Shown one piece after another: positions 35,700 to 45,802 of a DNA stretch of 64,000 nt (the first letter of the stretch is position 1; each line of letters opens with the position of its first letter). The notes below the pieces were generated by a model, which was given only the letters and a program-made list of their open reading frames with translations, was not told the DNA's origin and did not search any database. A program made the translations under genes and the position numbers. Origin of the DNA: Telopea speciosissima (Eukaryota > Streptophyta > Magnoliopsida > Proteales > Proteaceae); contig NC_057925.1 of assembly GCF_018873765.1 (NCBI RefSeq), positions 57,300,970 to 57,364,969 on the forward strand, read 5' to 3'.

Positions 35700-35843
35700 G
35701 TTCACCACATAAGGAGTAGAGCTTGCTGGCCTTTTTGAACAACACAACTGGCGCTTCAAGAAGGCAAGATTCTGGGCAGCATCACAGTCAATCCTCTTCA
35801 TCTCTATCTTTTGGTCCCCCATGGTTGTTCTCCTTTCCGCCAT
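35700..35843 (-). pseudogene. Type I MADS-box fragment, frameshifted
   Basis: From the ATG at 35843 the frame reads MAERRTTMGDQKIEMKRID, close to the start of the MADS domains at 38490 and 43652. After LAFLKRQL the MADS reading moves to another frame (VVLFKKASKLYSLCGE), so there is one frameshift. Homology stops after about 48 codons. It is head-to-head with the fragment at 35910-36085. Confidence 0.75.
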
Positions 35844-35909
35844 GATCCAAGGGATTAAAGACCAATCAAGAGAAAAGACTGAGATTGAGGTTGAGACAAT
35901 GGTGAGAGA

Positions 35910-36085
35910 GCTGCAAGCAAGAAGAACAACATGGAGGTTTTATGCTAGTAATTGGAGAAGAGGATGGACTGCGATGCTGTTTGGTAGCTCACCGGCCTTT
36001 TTGAAACGCCGAGTTGGGCTGTTCAAGAATGCCAACCAGTGCTACACCTAATGAGGGAGCGAGGTCATGATCGTCGATTTCAAGA
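35910..36085 (+). pseudogene. Type I MADS-box fragment, truncated
   Basis: Plus-strand remains of the same family: a degraded RRTTMG-like start near 35915, then LKRRVGLFKNANQ near 36003-36040, two stop codons, and GSEVMIVDFKSE. It cannot encode a MADS protein. With the minus-strand fragment it forms an older inverted pair, similar in layout to the intact pair at 43386-44277. Confidence 0.7.
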
Positions 36086-36496
36086 GTGAGAAACTACAAG
36101 AGAATGATAGGTGATAACCATGGCAGTTCAGGGGGAGAAGCCCCCATGGAACATCTCTACTTGGTTGATCTGCAGTAGTTGGAAGGCACAATGGTCAAAC
36201 AGAAGAAATGATTAACCAAGTGATATATAGTCATTTGGGCATTTAATGCGAACAGAAGAAACGCTTAACCAAATGAAGTAGTCATGATGTTTGGAATTTA
36301 ATGCGTAACGCCCATGAACAAGCTCTACTTGACTCATCTCCAGTAGTTGTAAGTCACATTAATGGTCGAACTAAAGAAACGTTTGATCAAATGATGTAGT
36401 CATGAAGTTGGGAATTTAATGCGTAGCGCTCATGGACCACCTTTACTTGATTGATCTCCATTAACTGGAACTCAAGAGGAACTTTATCCCCTCAAG

Positions 36497-36630
36497 TACA
36501 GTACACTCTCAAGTGCACTAAAATGGTACATTTGACGGAGCACATGGACTTAAAGAGTGTTTTAAAACAAAAACACTTTAAGGTGCATCGTAAGAAGTAC
36601 CTTTTTGGTGCACTTGAGGTGTTAATTTTC
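36497..36630. mobile_element. MITE inside the tandem array
   Basis: The left end CTCAAGTGCACTAAAATGGTAC is inverse to the right end GTACCTTTTTGGTGCACTTGAG (19 of 22 positions pair). It interrupts a repeat sub-unit between GGAAC near 36472 and AGATGGCC near 36651. Confidence 0.7.
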
Positions 36631-36696
36631 CAACCCCCCCCCCTCTCTCCAAGATGGCCAAACTAAAGAGACGCTAAACCAAGTATTGTAGTCATG

Positions 36697-36890
36697 GAAT
36701 TTTTATCACCTCTAATTCGCTGCTCGCTCCAATTCCTTTCAATTCCTCATATAGGAGCAGAAATGACCACCCTACCCCACCTTGGGCAGTGTGTTCGGGC
36801 AAGGGGGTAAGGTGGTCATTTTTGCTCCTATGTGAGGAATTGGAGGGAATTGGAGCAGACAGGAATTGGAGGTGATAACGATTCTATAGT
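36697..36890. mobile_element. MITE with TTATCACCTC ends inside the tandem array
   Basis: The left end TTTATCACCTCTAATTC and right end GAATTGGAGGTGATAA are inverse. Long arms follow with CCAATTCC..CAATTCCTCA and GGAGCAGAAATGACCACC / GGTGGTCATTTTTGCTCC. A relative with the same ends lies at 51736-51908. Confidence 0.8.
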
Positions 36891-37804
36891 CATGATGGAA
36901 ATTTAATGTGTAACGCCCTTGGTTAACCAAGTTATGTAGTCATGACGTTGGGAATTTAATGCATAACGCCCATGGACAAGCTCTACTTGGCTGATCTCCG
37001 GTAGTTGGAAGTTTGAATGATCGAACTAAAGAAACGCTTGATCAAGTGATGTAGTCATGAAGTCGGGAATTTAATGCGTAACGCACATGGACCACCTTTA
37101 CTTGACTGATCTCCATTAGTTGGAACCCAAAATGGCCAAATTAAAGAAACGTTAAACCAAGTATTGCAGTCATGATGTTAGAAGATTAATGTGTAACGCC
37201 CATCGTTAACCAAGTTATGTAGTCATGACGTTGGGAATTTAATGCATAACGCCCATGAACAAGCTCTGCTTGATCGATCTCCAGTAGTTGTAAGTCAGAA
37301 TGGTCGAACTGAAGAAACGCTTGATCAAGTGATGTAGTCATGAAGTTGGGAATTTAATGTGTATATCGCACATGGACCACCTTTACTAGATTGATCTCCA
37401 TTAGTTGGAAACCAAGACGGCCAAACTAAAGAAACGCTAAACAAAGTATTGCAGTCATGACGTTGGAAATTTAATGTGTAATGCCCATGGTTAACCAAGT
37501 TATGTAGTCATGACGTTGGGCTTTTAATGTGTAACGCCTCCATGGACCACCTCTACTTAACTGATCTCTAGTAGGTTTTTTTTTTTTTGATGAAAGTATA
37601 ATCACACAAACCACACACCAATCCCAAAAGGTTAACAGATTTTTAGGACCGATCTCTAGTAATTGGAGGTCACAATGGTCAAACTGAAGAAACGCTTGAA
37701 CAAGTGATGTAGTCATGACGATGGGAATTTAATGCGTAACGCCGATGGACCACCTCTACTTGACTAATCTAGTAATATCCAGTAGTTAGAAGTCAGAACT
37801 GTAC

Positions 37805-38489: not shown

Positions 38490-38756
38490 ATGGCAAGAAA
38501 GAGAACAAGCATGGGACACCAAAAGAGGGAGATGAAGATGATAGAGGATTGTAATGCTCGGTATGTCACATTTGCGAAACGTCGAGCTGACCTCTTTAAG
38601 AAGGCCAGCGAACTTTGCAACTTATGTGGTGCCGAGGTCGCCATCATCGTTTTCTCCCCGGCCGGAAATATATACACGTTTGGACACCCATCTGTGTATT
38701 CTATTGTCGATAGGTTTCTCAATGAAACCAACCCAGAGGTAGTGGAAGACAGCTAA
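38490..38756 (+). CDS. Short type I MADS-box protein (AGL62-like domain only), 88 aa
   Basis: Single exon, MARKRTSMGHQKREMK.. to ..ETNPEVVEDS. Residues 1-60 form a MADS domain of the type I M-alpha class ([26 protein letters not shown]), the class of AGL62 that acts in endosperm and female gametophyte. The usual C-terminal region of about 200 residues is missing; the stop follows soon after [16 protein letters not shown]. Two relatives at 43386-43652 (same length, 74 of 88 residues identical) and 43963-44277 stop in the same region. An in-frame extension to 38415 lacks similarity and I start at 38490. It may be a MADS-only regulator or an ancestor-truncated gene. Confidence 0.8.
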   Translation: MARKRTSMGHQKREMKMIEDCNARYVTFAKRRADLFKKASELCNLCGAEVAIIVFSPAGNIYTFGHPSVYSIVDRFLNETNPEVVEDS

Positions 38757-39363
38757 GCTGATGGAGGCCCAAGTTCCAATTCTTTCACTATTATTGCCCT
38801 GTAATTCTGTTGGAGCTGCTAAGAATGCTCTTATTGGTCCTTCGGGTTTTGGGTTTCAATAGGGGAATGGGCTTGTTGTACTTGGGCCTTCTAAATTGCT
38901 GTCGGGGTTGCCATACATGTTCTTTTTACCGGATGGAAAAAATGAAGGATGGAACAATAATAAATCTGTTTTGAGTATCTATTCTATTTTTTCAGGTGTT
39001 TTGTATGATTTATGGTTCTTATTTCTTATAAGTGAGAAGATTCGTTGCCTGATAGCATGACCCCTGCACACGAATAACTTTTAAAAATTTTTATAAACGA
39101 TTTTGATTTCACTATCCAAATTACGGTACCCTGTAACCATTTATAAACCATTTATAAACCTTTTAACACCTGCATAGAGGCTAAGAGGGGCAATTTTGTG
39201 GTTTCATACAAAACCAGTGAAAAAAAAATCATTGTTGGAGAGCGGTTTTATCAAACTGATATTTACCCCTTTCTTACTATAAAATTAAAATTAAACTCCT
39301 TTATCAAAAAAAAAAAAAAAACAAAACAAAATACTATTGTTCTATAATAATTGGATTTTTGAA

Positions 39364-39860
39364 TCATGAAATGAGAGACTGAATGATTTCTTCTTTTTTT
39401 CTTTGGTAAGCAAGGAACTTACTGAATAAAAGGGCCATGTGAACAACCTGTAGCTTCAGACAAAGGCCATGAAACCATAGAATGGAACACAGCCAATCTG
39501 TCATATACATGATAGACAGGGCCTTTCGTGCCAGGGCATCTACTACTACATCCAGAGCTTGTGGAATACATTGAAACGAAATCGAAACAAAAGAAGTAGA
39601 GGGACGCTTCACATCATCAATAATAGCAACTACATTTAGCGGTGGGATCTGGTGCGGTTCAAGAATGTAGGAGATGATTTCCTTGCTATCCGATTCAACT
39701 TAAAGTCGGTTGTACCCAGATTTGAGGGCTTGAGGTAACGCATGACGAATCATGGCGAATAGCTAAGGCCTCTCCTTGAGCAACCAAGTTAAGGCAAAAG
39801 GGAACTGAAATGACCTTCTGTTGTCACCTCCTATGATCCCAAAAGATATATCCAGTACCC
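39364..39860 (-). repeat. LINE fragment with RNase H-like (RVT_3) coding remains
   Basis: The minus strand reads ..MRHALPQALKSGYN.., VESDSKEIISYILEP, HQIPPLNVVAIIDD and a C-terminal ALDVVVDALARKALS, the pattern of the RNase H domain at the 3' end of plant L1-type LINEs. The reading frame is broken at least once. A T-rich tract at 39391-39402 fits the 3' tail. It lies just after the first MADS duplication unit. Confidence 0.65.
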
Positions 39861-40256
39861 CGCCTTTTGAACTTGAATGATTTTGAGTTTTTATTGTTTA
39901 ACTCTTCTTGGTAAATTTTGATTGAATTTGTTGAGGATACTGAGTATCCTAGTAAATCGGTTAATCGAAATATGGGGTTCATACAGATTATCCATGATTA
40001 TATTATTATTCATAAAAAATTACAACTTTTAAATCTAGGATTGAGATATTGAGTGATAATTCTTGTGCAGTTCGTTTGGATAAAACTTTGATTGAATTTG
40101 TTTTGAATACATTAACGGGTTTTTGTTGGTTATGGATTAAAATACAGATCGATCATCCGATTATCTATGAGAATGAGTTTTACTTCACGAAATAAATAAT
40201 AAAAGAGATGAATACAAACGATGAGTGAGTGAGTTAGGTAGGTAGGTCACTGAACC

Positions 40257-41696: not shown

Positions 41697-42344
41697 TTTT
41701 ATAAATATCTAGAAGTATTTACATGCATATATAGGATGTAAAGAAATACATAGAACTAGGTATGGTGTTATAGCCTGTTTTTTCATGCAAGTATTTACGC
41801 TCAATTGGATTGTTGATTGTTTTGAATATTTGTTTGCGGAAGGTGCATTGAGATTGATAGATTTTGAAAGAAGACTGTAGGAGTATTGACAGATTTGTAT
41901 TTTTCTTCCATGTTGGGGTCTACTATTAATGCACTAACCAGTGTTCTCTTTTTCATATCTTCCATAAACTCAATGTGATACTGTAGAATTGTTACATGGT
42001 TGGTTGGAAGGAAGCCACCCTTTCATGTTGAGTCATCACGTTTAAAATAGTGACTGATATGCCTTGAGTGGTTGCCATGAAAACGTATGAGATTTCATTT
42101 TATTCTTGATTGTTCACTTGGTATTTCTACATTGAAAGTCGAAAAGTGTACTGGATCAATACTTGCTGAAAGACACATATTTTGATTAAACGATTTACTA
42201 GGATTCTTGGTAAAATTCAATCAAAATTTAACCAGAAGATTTAAACATGAGGAACTCGAAATCATTCAATCTCTCAGTTCATGATTCCAAAAATCAAAAA
42301 TCAGTTTGATAAAAGGATTTGGATCCCCTCTGCGCCATCATGTT

Positions 42345-42497
42345 GTGCGCAACTCTTAGGTTGCCATATTGGCACAGATGTCCATCCAATGGTTGGGCAT
42401 CGAGCTCCTCAAAAATGCTGCTCAAAATTCAAATTTGAAAGGAGTTCAATGCCCAACCATTAGATGGGCATCTGTCCTGGAGGTGGCAACCTGAAAG
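42345..42497. mobile_element. Fold-back MITE (TTGGGCAT family) in the left MADS arm
   Basis: The left TTAGGTTGCCATATTGGCACAG and right (inverse) TTTCAGGTTGCCACCTCCAGG, then CCCATCTAATGGTTGGGCAT, pair closely. The same family is at 45315-45480, in the other arm. Confidence 0.75.
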
Positions 42498-42504
42498 TTT
42501 CCTC

Positions 42505-42535
42505 ACCCGTGTCTAGCATCTCCACGTACTTCCAT
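42505..42535 (-). pseudogene. Truncated copy of the small conserved protein gene
   Basis: ATGGAAGTACGTGGAGATG, then CTAGACACGGGTGAGG, matches the first 33 bases of the gene at 45080 except for two missing bases after the ATG and a few substitutions. The two-base loss shifts the frame and leads to a stop at once. Homology ends next to a MITE. It sits at the mirror position of the intact gene in the inverted duplication. Confidence 0.75.
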
Positions 42536-43385
42536 AAAGTAAGGAAGAGAAGTAAAGAGAAAAAAATTAATTGGAAAGGAATATGGTTGCTAGAACTTAA
42601 AACACATCCCATGTATCATCGCCTATGATCTTAGAAGCAATGCTTGATTTGTTTGGGGATAAGTTGGCAACCCTATTTATAGGCTGCCTTCTCAGCCGAG
42701 CTGGCCAGGAGGGCATCGATTCAAGAAGATGAGTTCGATTTTCGCTGCGACGCCGCGTGTTTGGGAAGGGGTACCAACATACTGTACCTACCAATTGATG
42801 AGCTGTTTGGAGTTTGGACAAAGTCATTAGGAAAGACCCTAGCTTTGTATGAAAATCATAAAATTGCCCCTTTTAGCCTCATTGCGGGTGTTAAAAGGTT
42901 TATAAATGGCTATAACCTTATAGGGTACAGTAATTCGATTTGGGTTGACAGAGTACATTAGATAAAATCAGTACTACTCTTTAACAAACGATTTTGGTCT
43001 TTTAGATAGTGAAATCAAAATCGTTTATAAACAATTTAAAAAGTTATTCATCTGCTGGGGCCATGCTGCCAGTCAGATAATCCTCTCACTTAAAAGATAT
43101 AAGAACCATAAATCATACAAAACACCTGCAAAAATAGACATAGATAACAAAAGTAGAATTCATACCCAAAAGATTTATTATTGTTCCATCCTTTATTTTT
43201 TTCATCCGGTAACAAGAACATCGATCAATTGCAATCTCTACTGCAATTTAGAAGGCCCAAGTACAACAAGCCCATTCCCATATTGGAACTCAAAACCCGA
43301 AGGACCAATAAGAGTATTCTCAGCCACTCCAACAGAATTACTGGGCAATAGCAGTGAAGGAATCGAAACCTGGGCCTCCATCAGC

Positions 43386-43652
43386 TTAGCTGTCTTCCAC
43401 TTCCTCTGGGTTGGTTTCATTGAGAAACCTATCGACAATAGAATATACAGATGGGTATCCAAATGCGTATATATTGTCGGCCGGGGAGAAAACGATGATG
43501 ACGACCTCGGCACCACAGAAGGTACAGAGCTCACTAGCCTTCTTAAAGAGGCCAACTTGACGTTTCGAGAATGTGACATACCGAGCATTATAATCCTCTA
43601 TCATCTTCATCTCTCTCTTTTGGCGTCCCATGCTTGTTCTCTTTCTTGTCAT
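43386..43652 (-). CDS. Short type I MADS-box protein, 88 aa (left arm)
   Basis: [16 protein letters not shown].. to ..[10 protein letters not shown], single exon. MADS core [27 protein letters not shown]. Length and stop position equal the copy at 38490; 14 of 88 residues differ. It is divergently oriented to the gene at 43963, with start codons 310 bp apart. Downstream of the stop a shifted frame stays open ([20 protein letters not shown]..) and is shared with the right arm, so the family C-terminus may once have been read in that frame. Confidence 0.8.
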
Positions 43653-43825
43653 GATCCAAAGGACTGAGGATGATTCAAGAAAGAGACACAAATGGAGGTT
43701 GAGATAACAAACAAGAAGAAAAATATGGGGTATGATTATATAAAAGTCTCCAAGGTATCCAAATGATAAGCCCTATTACCTATCATTCTAAAATATTGTT
43801 TATAAATGAAAATTATATATTTATC

Positions 43826-45112
43826 ATTTGGATACCTTGGAGACTTGTGAATTCCTTGCAGATATGATCATACCCCATATTTTTCTTCTTTCTTGTAGCT
43901 TTCACATCTCTTGCAACCTCATTTGTGTCTCTTTTCTTGAATCATTCTTAGTCCCTTGGATCATGGTAGAAAAGAGAACAAGCATGGGACGCCGAAAGAT
44001 AGAGATGAAGATGATCGAGAATTATTCTGCTCAGTATGTCACATTATCGAGACGTCAAGCTGGCCTATTTAAGAAGGCCAACAAGCTCTGCACCTTATGT
44101 GGTGCCGAGGTCGCCATCATCGTTTTCTCCCCTGTCGACAATGTGTTCTCCTTTGGACATCCATCTGTGGATTCTATTGTCTATAGGTTTCTAAATGAAA
44201 CCAGCCCACAGGGAGTGGAAGAAAGCGAAGTTGATGGAGGCCCAGGTTCCGGTTCCTTCACTGCTGTTGCCCAGTAATTCTGTTGGAACGGATGAGACTA
44301 CTCTTATTGGTCCATTGGGTTTTGGGTCCCAATATGGGAATGGACTTGTTGTACTTCGGCCTTCTAAATTGCAGCAGAGATTGCACTTGATGTTCTTGTT
44401 ACCAGATGGAAAAAAATAAATGATGGATTTATCTATTTTTGCAGGTGTTTTGTATTTGTATGATTTATGGTTCTTATTTGGCCCTTATAGATGAATAAAT
44501 ATTTAAATTGTTTATAAATGATTATGATTTCACTATCTAAAAGACTAAAATCATTTGTTAAATAGTAGTAGTGATTTCTATCTAATTTACTCTGTCAAAC
44601 CAAATCGAATTACGGTATAAGGCTATAACCATTTATAAACCTTTTAACATCCCGCATTGAGGCTAAGAGGGGCAATTTTGTGGTTTTCTTACAAAGCTAG
44701 GGCCTTTCCCAATGACTTCGCCCAAACTCCAAACAACTCAGTTTGTAGGTACGATACGTCGGTTCCCCTTCCCAAACACGCGGTGTTGCGGTGCAAATCG
44801 GACACATTTTCTCGAATCAATTATCTCCCGAAGGCAGCCTAAATAAAGGGTTGCCAACTTCTCCCCAAGCATTGCTTCTGAGATCATGGGCACTGTCTAA
44901 TACATGGGATGTGTTTTAAGTTTTAGTAGATCATATTCCTTTCTAATTAATTTGTTTCTCTTTACTTCTCTTCCTTAGTTTCATCTTTTCTTCCCTTCTT
45001 CAATCTTCACAGTTTTGCTACTTTTTCAAAAGAAAAGCAACAGAGAAGATAGAGTCAGCGGCAAAGAAGGAGAGCAGAGATGGGGAAGTATGTGGAGATG
45101 CTAGACGCAGGG
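43826..45112 (+). repeat. Right arm of the MADS inverted duplication
   Basis: Mirror image of 42505-43772 across a spacer of only about 54 bp. The beginning (ATCATTTGGATACCTTGGAG) also matches the direct copy near 38343, which makes three units in the cluster. Confidence 0.85.
43963..44277 (+). CDS. Short type I MADS-box protein, 104 aa (right arm)
   Basis: [16 protein letters not shown].., core [27 protein letters not shown], ending ..[12 protein letters not shown]. It is more diverged than the other two, and its stop lies 16 codons later because the TAA after the 88th codon is replaced. The first MADS residues are changed (VEKRTS for ARKRTS), losing one basic residue of the DNA-contacting N-terminal arm. 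The ATG at 43963 aligns with the other copies. Confidence 0.75.
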
Positions 45113-45244
45113 GTTAGGATTGCAGCTCACATCCATTCTCACTGCCCTCAGACAGTGAGGATGTACTACCACCCTCCGTCCAACCCTGACAACAATACTG
45201 TGGGCGTCGACACTGATGATTTCATTCTTTATTCCATTGTATGA
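45080..45244 (+). CDS. Small conserved plant protein of unknown function, 54 aa
   Basis: Single exon starting [19 protein letters not shown], then [17 protein letters not shown], and ending [10 protein letters not shown] recognise the pattern ([32 protein letters not shown]...FILYS) from small uncharacterised proteins of land plants; no function is known to me. The usual RFHSHCPQTARMYYHPP core is changed at a few places (HIH, TVR). The leader is pyrimidine-rich, and a TATA-like AAATAAAG lies near 44843. The gene lies inside the right arm of the MADS duplication and has a broken twin at 42505-42535. Confidence 0.8.
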
Positions 45245-45314: not shown

Positions 45315-45480
45315 TGAGGTTGTGCGGCCATGGTGTTGCGTGCAACTCCCAGGTCACCACCTCAGCACAGATGCCCATCCAAGGGTTGGGCATCCTTTCA
45401 AATTCGAATTTTAAGCGCCATTTTTGAGTAGCTCGATGCCCAACCATAGAATGAGCATCTGTGCTAAGGTGGCGACCATT
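45315..45480. mobile_element. Fold-back MITE (TTGGGCAT family)
   Basis: CTCCCAGGTCACCACCTCAGCA, then GATGCCCATCC.., pairs with GATGAGCATCTGTGCT.. written as ATGAGCATCTGTGCTAAGGTGGCGACC on the right, around two GGTTGGGCAT/GATGCCCAACC motifs. Same family as 42345-42497. The minus-strand frame 45271-45555 is due to it. Confidence 0.7.
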
Positions 45481-45702
45481 ACCCATTGAACCAATGATAC
45501 CAGAGGACCAAAGACCGGGTTCAAGTTGGGTCAAAGCAAACCGAGCTAAATGCATGGTAGATTTATAGTTTTTGGACAGACCTGGGCCTAGTCAAAGTGT
45601 TCAGCTTTAACAATTTGACTGGTTTTCCTCCAAGCTTGGTTCCAAGAATTGAATTAGAATCATCGGAAATGGCTAATTCAAATTCAAATCGAAACAAACA
45701 AT

Positions 45703-45802
45703 TAAATTAGAATTAGTCATGAATGCACTTGGATCTTCATTGTTGCCCATTTTAAATTAGAATTAGTCATGAATGCACTTGGATCTTCATTGTTGCCCAT
45801 TT
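45703..45802 (+). repeat. Exact 50-bp tandem duplication
   Basis: Two adjacent identical 50-base units (45703-45752, 45753-45802) containing GAATTAGTCATGAATGCAC and GGATCTTCATTGTTGCCC. No mismatch is seen, so the event is recent. Confidence 0.9.

What the first reader, a model, noticed from the sequence alone, without database searches (positions are those of the whole stretch)
42505..45112. Head-to-head inverted duplication of a MADS gene with a 54-bp spacer
Two arms of about 1.2 kb, each with a short type I MADS gene, face away from a centre of about 54 bp (43772-43826). Transcription through the centre would give a long hairpin RNA. Inverted duplication of coding genes is one proposed origin of new small-RNA loci, and the targets here would be sister MADS genes (38490) and paralogues elsewhere.
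Basis: partly seen in the sequence, partly recalled or inferred. Interest (0 to 1): 0.75.

Follow-up and report, generated by a model that had tools for sequence, protein, structure and literature searches.

The report
Back-to-back copies of MADS gene
Two short, diverged copies of a seed-type MADS gene sit back to back in this plant chromosome; this is most likely ordinary local gene duplication, although any RNA read across both copies would fold into a long hairpin.

Summary
Arms 42505-43772 and 43826-45112 are inverted copies (77.7% over the gapped BLAST match, 85-91% per segment with gaps set aside), each with an open type I MADS reading frame pointing away from the centre. They align well beyond the MADS domain, into the start of a second gene, so that refutation test does not refute. 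An RNA spanning both arms would pair about 80% of its bases across the centre. The small-RNA reading has no direct evidence: no expression data were available, the genes are divergent, and no indel has entered the frames while 19 entered the flanks. One ambiguous hint favours silencing: transitions private to the left arm are almost all C>T/G>A (16 to 1), in no preferred context. The arms are not a simple pair: in 5' flank and frame the left arm is closer to the copy at 38490, 3' of the stop codon to the right arm. Best reading: birth-and-death duplication of a two-gene block, with later recombination or conversion. A second inverted MADS pair on the chromosome has arms that are mostly LTR-like. 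By size the genome fits Telopea speciosissima.

The parts
42505..43772 (-). Left arm (copy B unit): MADS gene, 3' region, and a truncated start of a second gene (MGKYVEM type)
   Evidence: Inverted match to the right arm
43386..43652 (-). Copy B: short type I MADS frame, 88 aa plus stop TAA
   Evidence: Open frame; Pfam SRF-TF E 4.5e-23
43773..43825 (.). Centre between the arms; 43784-43802 resembles the upstream of copy A (18 of 19 bp)
   Evidence: alignment; one search score 33 against shuffle maximum 30
43826..45112 (+). Right arm (copy C unit)
43963..44277 (+). Copy C: short type I MADS frame, 104 aa plus stop; lacks the stop shared by A and B
   Evidence: Open frame; Pfam SRF-TF E 9.7e-21
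45080..45244 (+). Second gene of the block in copy C ([12 protein letters not shown]..., 54 aa), shorter than the 83-aa relative at C10:7947430-7947910; no Pfam family over its cut-off
38490..38756 (+). Copy A: third MADS frame, 88 aa plus the same stop as B; downstream, at 39205-39269, it keeps the 3' end of the second gene without its coding part
   Evidence: A 39200-39330 matches the 3' end of the C10:7947 relative, score 83 against shuffle maximum 27
35702..35936 (-). Degenerate MADS copy D
   Evidence: nhmmer E 8.6e-42; its 55-aa peptide scores no Pfam family
35957..36081 (+). Degenerate MADS fragment E, head-to-head with D
   Evidence: nhmmer E 2.2e-12; tblastn shows stops
42334..42499 (.). 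Palindromic MITE-like element at the outer end of the left arm
   Evidence: Repeats D7, I6, I20
45327..45477 (.). Related palindromic MITE-like element beyond the right arm; its start also follows the second-gene copy at C2:17100 kb
   Evidence: Repeats D7, I6, I18; L085 match, score 105 against shuffle maximum 21

Best explanation
This is a local cluster of short type I (AGL62-like) MADS genes produced by birth-and-death duplication of a two-gene block (a MADS gene followed by a small MGKYVEM-type gene). One copy (B) came to lie inverted next to copy C, so B and C are divergent genes with 310 bp between their start codons. B is a mosaic: its 5' flank and frame resemble A, its 3' part resembles C, which suggests recombination or gene conversion among the copies. 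B and C act, if at all, as two short MADS-domain proteins; the hairpin potential is a by-product. Shown: arms, frames, similarity pattern, folding. Inferred: conversion, divergent transcription, lack of a small-RNA role.
For: Five MADS copies or pieces in about 9 kb; 132 SRF-TF matches genome-wide, a lower bound, many in arrays. No gap in 264 ORF columns among A, B, C against 19 gap events in 721 flanking columns; a Poisson estimate from those figures gives about 0.001. A-B distances 0.051 (5' flank) and 0.097 (ORF) against B-C 0.147 and 0.169; 3' near-region A-B 0.131 against B-C 0.096. Breakpoint test: 41:14 against 23:38 sites, 4 of 2000 permutations as extreme; noncoding sites alone p 0.004. 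ORF tree joins A and B at 96/92 with C outside. The two-gene block recurs: MADS hits at C10:7.88-7.92 Mb lie beside second-gene hits at C10:7.93-7.95 Mb, and A keeps that gene's 3' end.
Against: Selection on the protein is not well shown: dN/dS by NG86 is 0.37 (A-B), 0.90 (A-C), 0.71 (B-C), and differences by codon position are 4/9/11, 10/18/13, 11/14/14. The frames end right after the MADS domain whereas the 12 best paralogues have stop-free frames of 196-293 aa, so all three may be decaying. Regional rate differences could mimic part of the mosaic signal, and outgroup polarisation of frame sites is mixed. B-private transitions are 16 C>T/G>A to 1 reverse, against 17:13 in A and 23:13 in C (B against A plus C, p 0.008), which could reflect past methylation of B; the contexts (1 CG, 3 CHG, 12 CHH) follow their supply (38, 49, 262), and the A and C counts are not cleanly polarised. 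No expression data.
Confidence: 0.7

Rival explanations
1. Hairpin small-RNA locus: read-through transcription across the centre gives a long imperfect hairpin that Dicer-like enzymes cut into siRNAs acting on copy A and other type I MADS genes.
For: Strong folding on both strands; 10 exact shared stretches of 21-24 nt between the arms; 81 left-arm and 25 right-arm exact 21-mers to copy A, and at least one 21-mer within 2 mismatches in 12 of 14 paralogue loci; C>T/G>A excess private to the left arm, 16 to 1. Precedents, read as passages: adjacent inverted rice pseudogenes with small RNAs on the duplex (PMC2708354); AGLs including AGL62 as targets of endosperm siRNAs in Capsella (PMC11649575, PMC13293092).
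Against: No transcript or small-RNA evidence; genes point outwards; frames free of indels; CpG o/e of the arms, 0.56 and 0.50, is like the window's 0.53; the C>T excess is weak in the right arm (23:13) and shows no CG/CHG preference; exact 21-mers in only 2 of 14 paralogue loci.
Confidence: 0.14
2. Decaying pseudogene cluster: same origin as the best explanation, but all copies are inert and the frames are open only because of youth. It overlaps the best explanation and differs only in present function.
For: Truncation relative to paralogues; dN/dS 0.7-0.9 with C; D and E already broken; copy C has lost the TATATAA-like motif that A and B keep about 100 bp upstream of the start (reading of the alignment).
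Against: Zero indels in 264 ORF columns against 19 in 721 flanking columns; SRF-TF domains intact with scores far over the cut-off.
Confidence: 0.35
3. Assembly artefact (false inverted duplication).
For: Inverted repeats are a known assembly hazard (general knowledge).
Against: Arms differ at 9-15% of ungapped sites with private indels, which an artefact or a haplotype pair would not be expected to give.
Confidence: 0.02

Closest known systems
Type I M-alpha (AGL62-like) MADS-box gene clusters under birth-and-death evolution (Nam et al. 2004, seen as cited in PMC13293092; passages read)
   Same: Local copies with frequent decay and an SRF-TF domain; paralogues in this genome carry a WWEAPIENMGL-type C-terminal region (that this marks AGL62-like genes is recalled)
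   Different: Window copies end after the MADS domain, and one neighbouring pair is head-to-head with 310 bp between starts
MIRNA loci from inverted duplication of target genes (MIR161, MIR163, MIR1444; PMC5223194 passages read; Allen et al. 2004 seen only as a citation)
   Same: Inverted copies of a coding gene with extended similarity, and a sister gene as possible target
   Different: No small RNA or precursor known here; copies are head-to-head with open frames (the MIR1444 model is tail-to-tail)
Rice inverted pseudogene pair giving small RNAs (PMC2708354, passages read)
   Same: Adjacent inverted paralogous copies that could form a duplex
   Different: There small RNAs were mapped to a 185-nt duplex; here none could be examined and the arms are about 1.2 kb

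Membership tests
Type I MADS (M-alpha, AGL62-like) | SRF-TF/MADS domain | tested here: met
   Three frames, E 1.2e-23 to 9.7e-21
Type I MADS (M-alpha, AGL62-like) | Closest relatives are long AGL62-like genes | tested here: inconclusive
   The 12 best paralogues are 58-65% identical to B with frames of 196-293 aa, and the 8 of them read as L056-L063 all show a WWEAPIENM-type region; the sub-family name is recalled and no plant reference tree was made
Type I MADS (M-alpha, AGL62-like) | C-terminal region after the MADS domain | tested here: not met
   Frames stop at 88, 88 and 104 aa; a downstream out-of-frame match to a paralogue C-terminus is weak (best E 0.080)
Inverted-duplication small-RNA locus | Inverted arms able to form a long duplex | tested here: met
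Inverted-duplication small-RNA locus | Single precursor transcript across both arms | not testable with these tools
   No RNA data; genes are divergent
Inverted-duplication small-RNA locus | 21-24 nt small RNAs from the arms | not testable with these tools
   No small-RNA libraries held
Inverted-duplication small-RNA locus | Near-identical target elsewhere | tested here: inconclusive
   Copy A yes (81 exact 21-mers from B, 25 from C); of 14 paralogue loci 2 have exact 21-mers and 12 have some within 2 mismatches

The most novel reading that the evidence does not exclude
The inverted AGL62-like pair is a siren-type trans-acting siRNA source in seeds of a Proteaceae tree, made from the genes it restrains, so that dosage control of type I MADS genes by siRNAs arose independently of Brassicaceae through inverted duplication.
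Probability: 0.08. Interest if true: 0.7.

Novelty: new member of a known kind. Interest (0 to 1): 0.3.

Why it matters
Type I MADS genes regulate endosperm growth, and several, AGL62 among them, are siRNA targets in Capsella. Inverted copies of such genes are natural candidates for making such siRNAs; this locus gives a concrete, testable case outside Brassicaceae. If the ordinary reading holds, it is one more example of fast turnover in this gene family.

Tried and rejected
A retrocopy origin of the second-gene fragment was considered, because the match breaks near query position 506. Reading the relative shows a continuous coding frame of 83 aa across that place, so the break is a deletion in copy C and not a lost intron; the idea was dropped.

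The shared second-gene tail was first taken as a derived mark joining B and C. One search shows that A keeps the 3' end of that gene, so A most simply lost the coding part; the tail no longer groups B with C. The MITE-like element may still do so (B keeps TTTTATCAA after it, C before it; sequence reading only), but its copy number could not be searched.

A signature of past methylation was looked for. CG plus CHG changes private to each copy are few (8 in A, 4 in B, 11 in C). On recheck B's private transitions are 16 C>T/G>A to 1 reverse, p 0.008 against A plus C, without context preference.

The second inverted MADS pair (C10:11505803-11509634, arms about 1.86 kb, 95.2% identical, 122-bp spacer) first looked like a younger twin of the window pair. 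Only about 150 bp of each arm is MADS; the rest is an insertion of about 1.7 kb in the MADS frame whose ends and an adjoining primer-binding-site-like motif look like a retrotransposon LTR (the motif reading is recalled). It is an analogue, not strong support.

A C-terminal remnant out of frame downstream of the MADS domain was tested and is inconclusive.

Two rows were unusable at first: L069 and L070 lie on the minus strand, so could not read their frames and one search scanned L069 on the wrong strand; they were left out of the tree and scanned on the right strand.

Full report
Where it lies. The window is C10:57300970-57364969 of an assembly of 822,943,500 bases in 1287 contigs; contigs C1 to C11 run from 57.3 to 87.8 Mb. 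A comparison table in PMC13080361 (passages read) gives Telopea speciosissima as 823 Mb, 11 scaffolds, N50 69 Mb. The match is by size only; the name is an inference.

The observation. The inverted arms are real. BLAST of the region on itself gives one inverted match between 42536 and 44981 at 77.7% over 2591 columns; ungapped blocks are 78-94% alike. In the MAFFT alignment the arms run from 43772/43826 to about 42507/45112: about 120 (B) or 137 (C) bp upstream of the starts, the frames, about 500 bp of 3' sequence and the start of a second gene. With gaps set aside, B and C differ by Jukes-Cantor distances of 0.147 (5' flank), 0.169 (frame), 0.096, 0.114 and 0.091 (three 3' segments) and 0.162 (tail).

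What the arms hold. Left (B): 88-aa frame, 43652-43386, minus strand. Right (C): 104-aa frame, 43963-44277, plus strand. Both have intact SRF-TF domains, as has copy A at 38490-38756. The starts of B and C have 310 bp between them and the genes run outwards. The frames stop just after the MADS domain, while the 12 best paralogues in the genome (58-65% identical to B) have stop-free frames of 196-293 aa, so the window genes are C-terminally short. Beyond the MADS gene each unit carries a small second gene: 54 aa in C, a stub in B, only its 3' end in A. MADS hits and second-gene hits lie close together again at C10:7.88-7.95 Mb, so the two-gene block is probably older than this cluster. Two broken MADS pieces at 35702-35936 (-) and 35957-36081 (+) complete the cluster.

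History of the copies. In the frame, a tree with 11 paralogues joins A with B (96/92) and leaves C outside; the C10:7.90-Mb paralogue, on a long branch, is the nearest neighbour of the three (84/84). 3' of the stop codon B is closer to C. A breakpoint test on 116 sites places the change just past the stop (alignment columns 478-492): 41 sites joining A and B and 14 joining B and C on the left, 23 and 38 on the right, 4 of 2000 permutations as extreme; with the frame left out, 13:3 against 24:38, p 0.004. Recombination or gene conversion is the simplest cause; unequal rates along A or C could contribute. Outgroup polarisation of frame sites is mixed: of 21 sites joining A and B, 9 are derived in C, 7 derived in A and B, 5 unclear or other; of 11 joining B and C, 2 are derived in B and C, 7 in A, 2 unclear or other; of 9 joining A and C, 2 are derived in A and C, 5 in B, 2 unclear. 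So the pair B/C should not be read as one clean palindromic duplication event.

Constraint. Pairwise dN/dS (NG86) is 0.37 (A-B), 0.90 (A-C) and 0.71 (B-C), and codon-position counts show no clear protein constraint. On the other hand, none of the 19 gap events falls in the 264 frame columns while 721 flanking columns hold all of them. I take this as moderate evidence that the frames were kept, at least until recently.

Hairpin. RNA folding of 42505-45112 gives -1659.5 kcal/mol (plus) and -1645.9 (minus), with 1048 and 1032 pairs across the centre; six control stretches of equal length give -534.0 to -726.3 and 39 to 245 such pairs. The arms share 10 exact stretches of 21-24 nt. Exact 21-mers to copy A: 81 of 1248 from B and 25 of 1267 from C. 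Of 14 paralogue loci scanned on the right strand (12, L069 and L070), 2 (L056 and L083) have exact 21-mers, 3 each from B and none from C; 12 of 14 have at least one 21-mer within 2 mismatches, and L063 and L070 have none. A shuffled copy of L056 had 5 (B) and 0 (C) within 4 mismatches. CpG content does not single out the arms. B's private transitions are biased, 16 C>T/G>A to 1 reverse against 17:13 in A and 23:13 in C (p 0.008); the contexts follow their supply, and A and C are not cleanly polarised, so this is a hint of past methylation at most. Nothing here shows that the hairpin is ever made.

Other inverted pairs. Among 77 of the 132 SRF-TF matches, chosen by eye as having neighbours, the two pairs within 1 kb are both head-to-head (the window pair and C10:11507 kb); within 10 kb there are 20 same-strand, 3 head-to-head and 1 tail-to-tail pairs. 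The C10:11507 pair has arms of about 1.86 kb at 95.2% identity, but only about 150 bp per arm is MADS; the rest looks like a retrotransposon LTR in a MADS frame.

Literature. Among the titles and abstract starts listed by seven searches of the held library (one search listed 15 of 21 papers and 8 of 14) I saw none on an inverted type I MADS pair as a small-RNA source; this is not proof of absence. Passages were read from five papers (PMC13080361, PMC5223194, PMC13293092, PMC2708354, PMC11649575).

Verdict. Observation confirmed; interpretation partly supported, as a possibility only. The most likely reading is ordinary birth-and-death duplication with an inverted neighbour and some exchange between copies.

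Noticed in passing
35702-36081: Second head-to-head remnant of MADS pieces, both broken.
   Followed up: partly
36138-37790: Array of diverged repeats of about 115-190 bp between the MADS pieces and copy A (families D1-D4).
   Followed up: no
L083 3004-6835 (C10:11505803-11509634): Inverted MADS pair with 122-bp spacer; arms mostly an LTR-like insertion inside the MADS frame.
   Followed up: partly
L085 (C2:17099950-17100450): A copy of the second gene (86% to copy C) followed by the start of the same MITE-like element at the same point as in copy C.
   Followed up: partly
39390-39873: Extra stretch of about 480 bp in copy A's downstream sequence relative to copy B; origin not examined.
   Followed up: no
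45702-45801: Perfect 50-bp tandem duplication (D10).
   Followed up: no
copy B, 42840-43772: Private transitions in copy B are almost all C>T/G>A (16 to 1), unlike copies A and C.
   Followed up: partly
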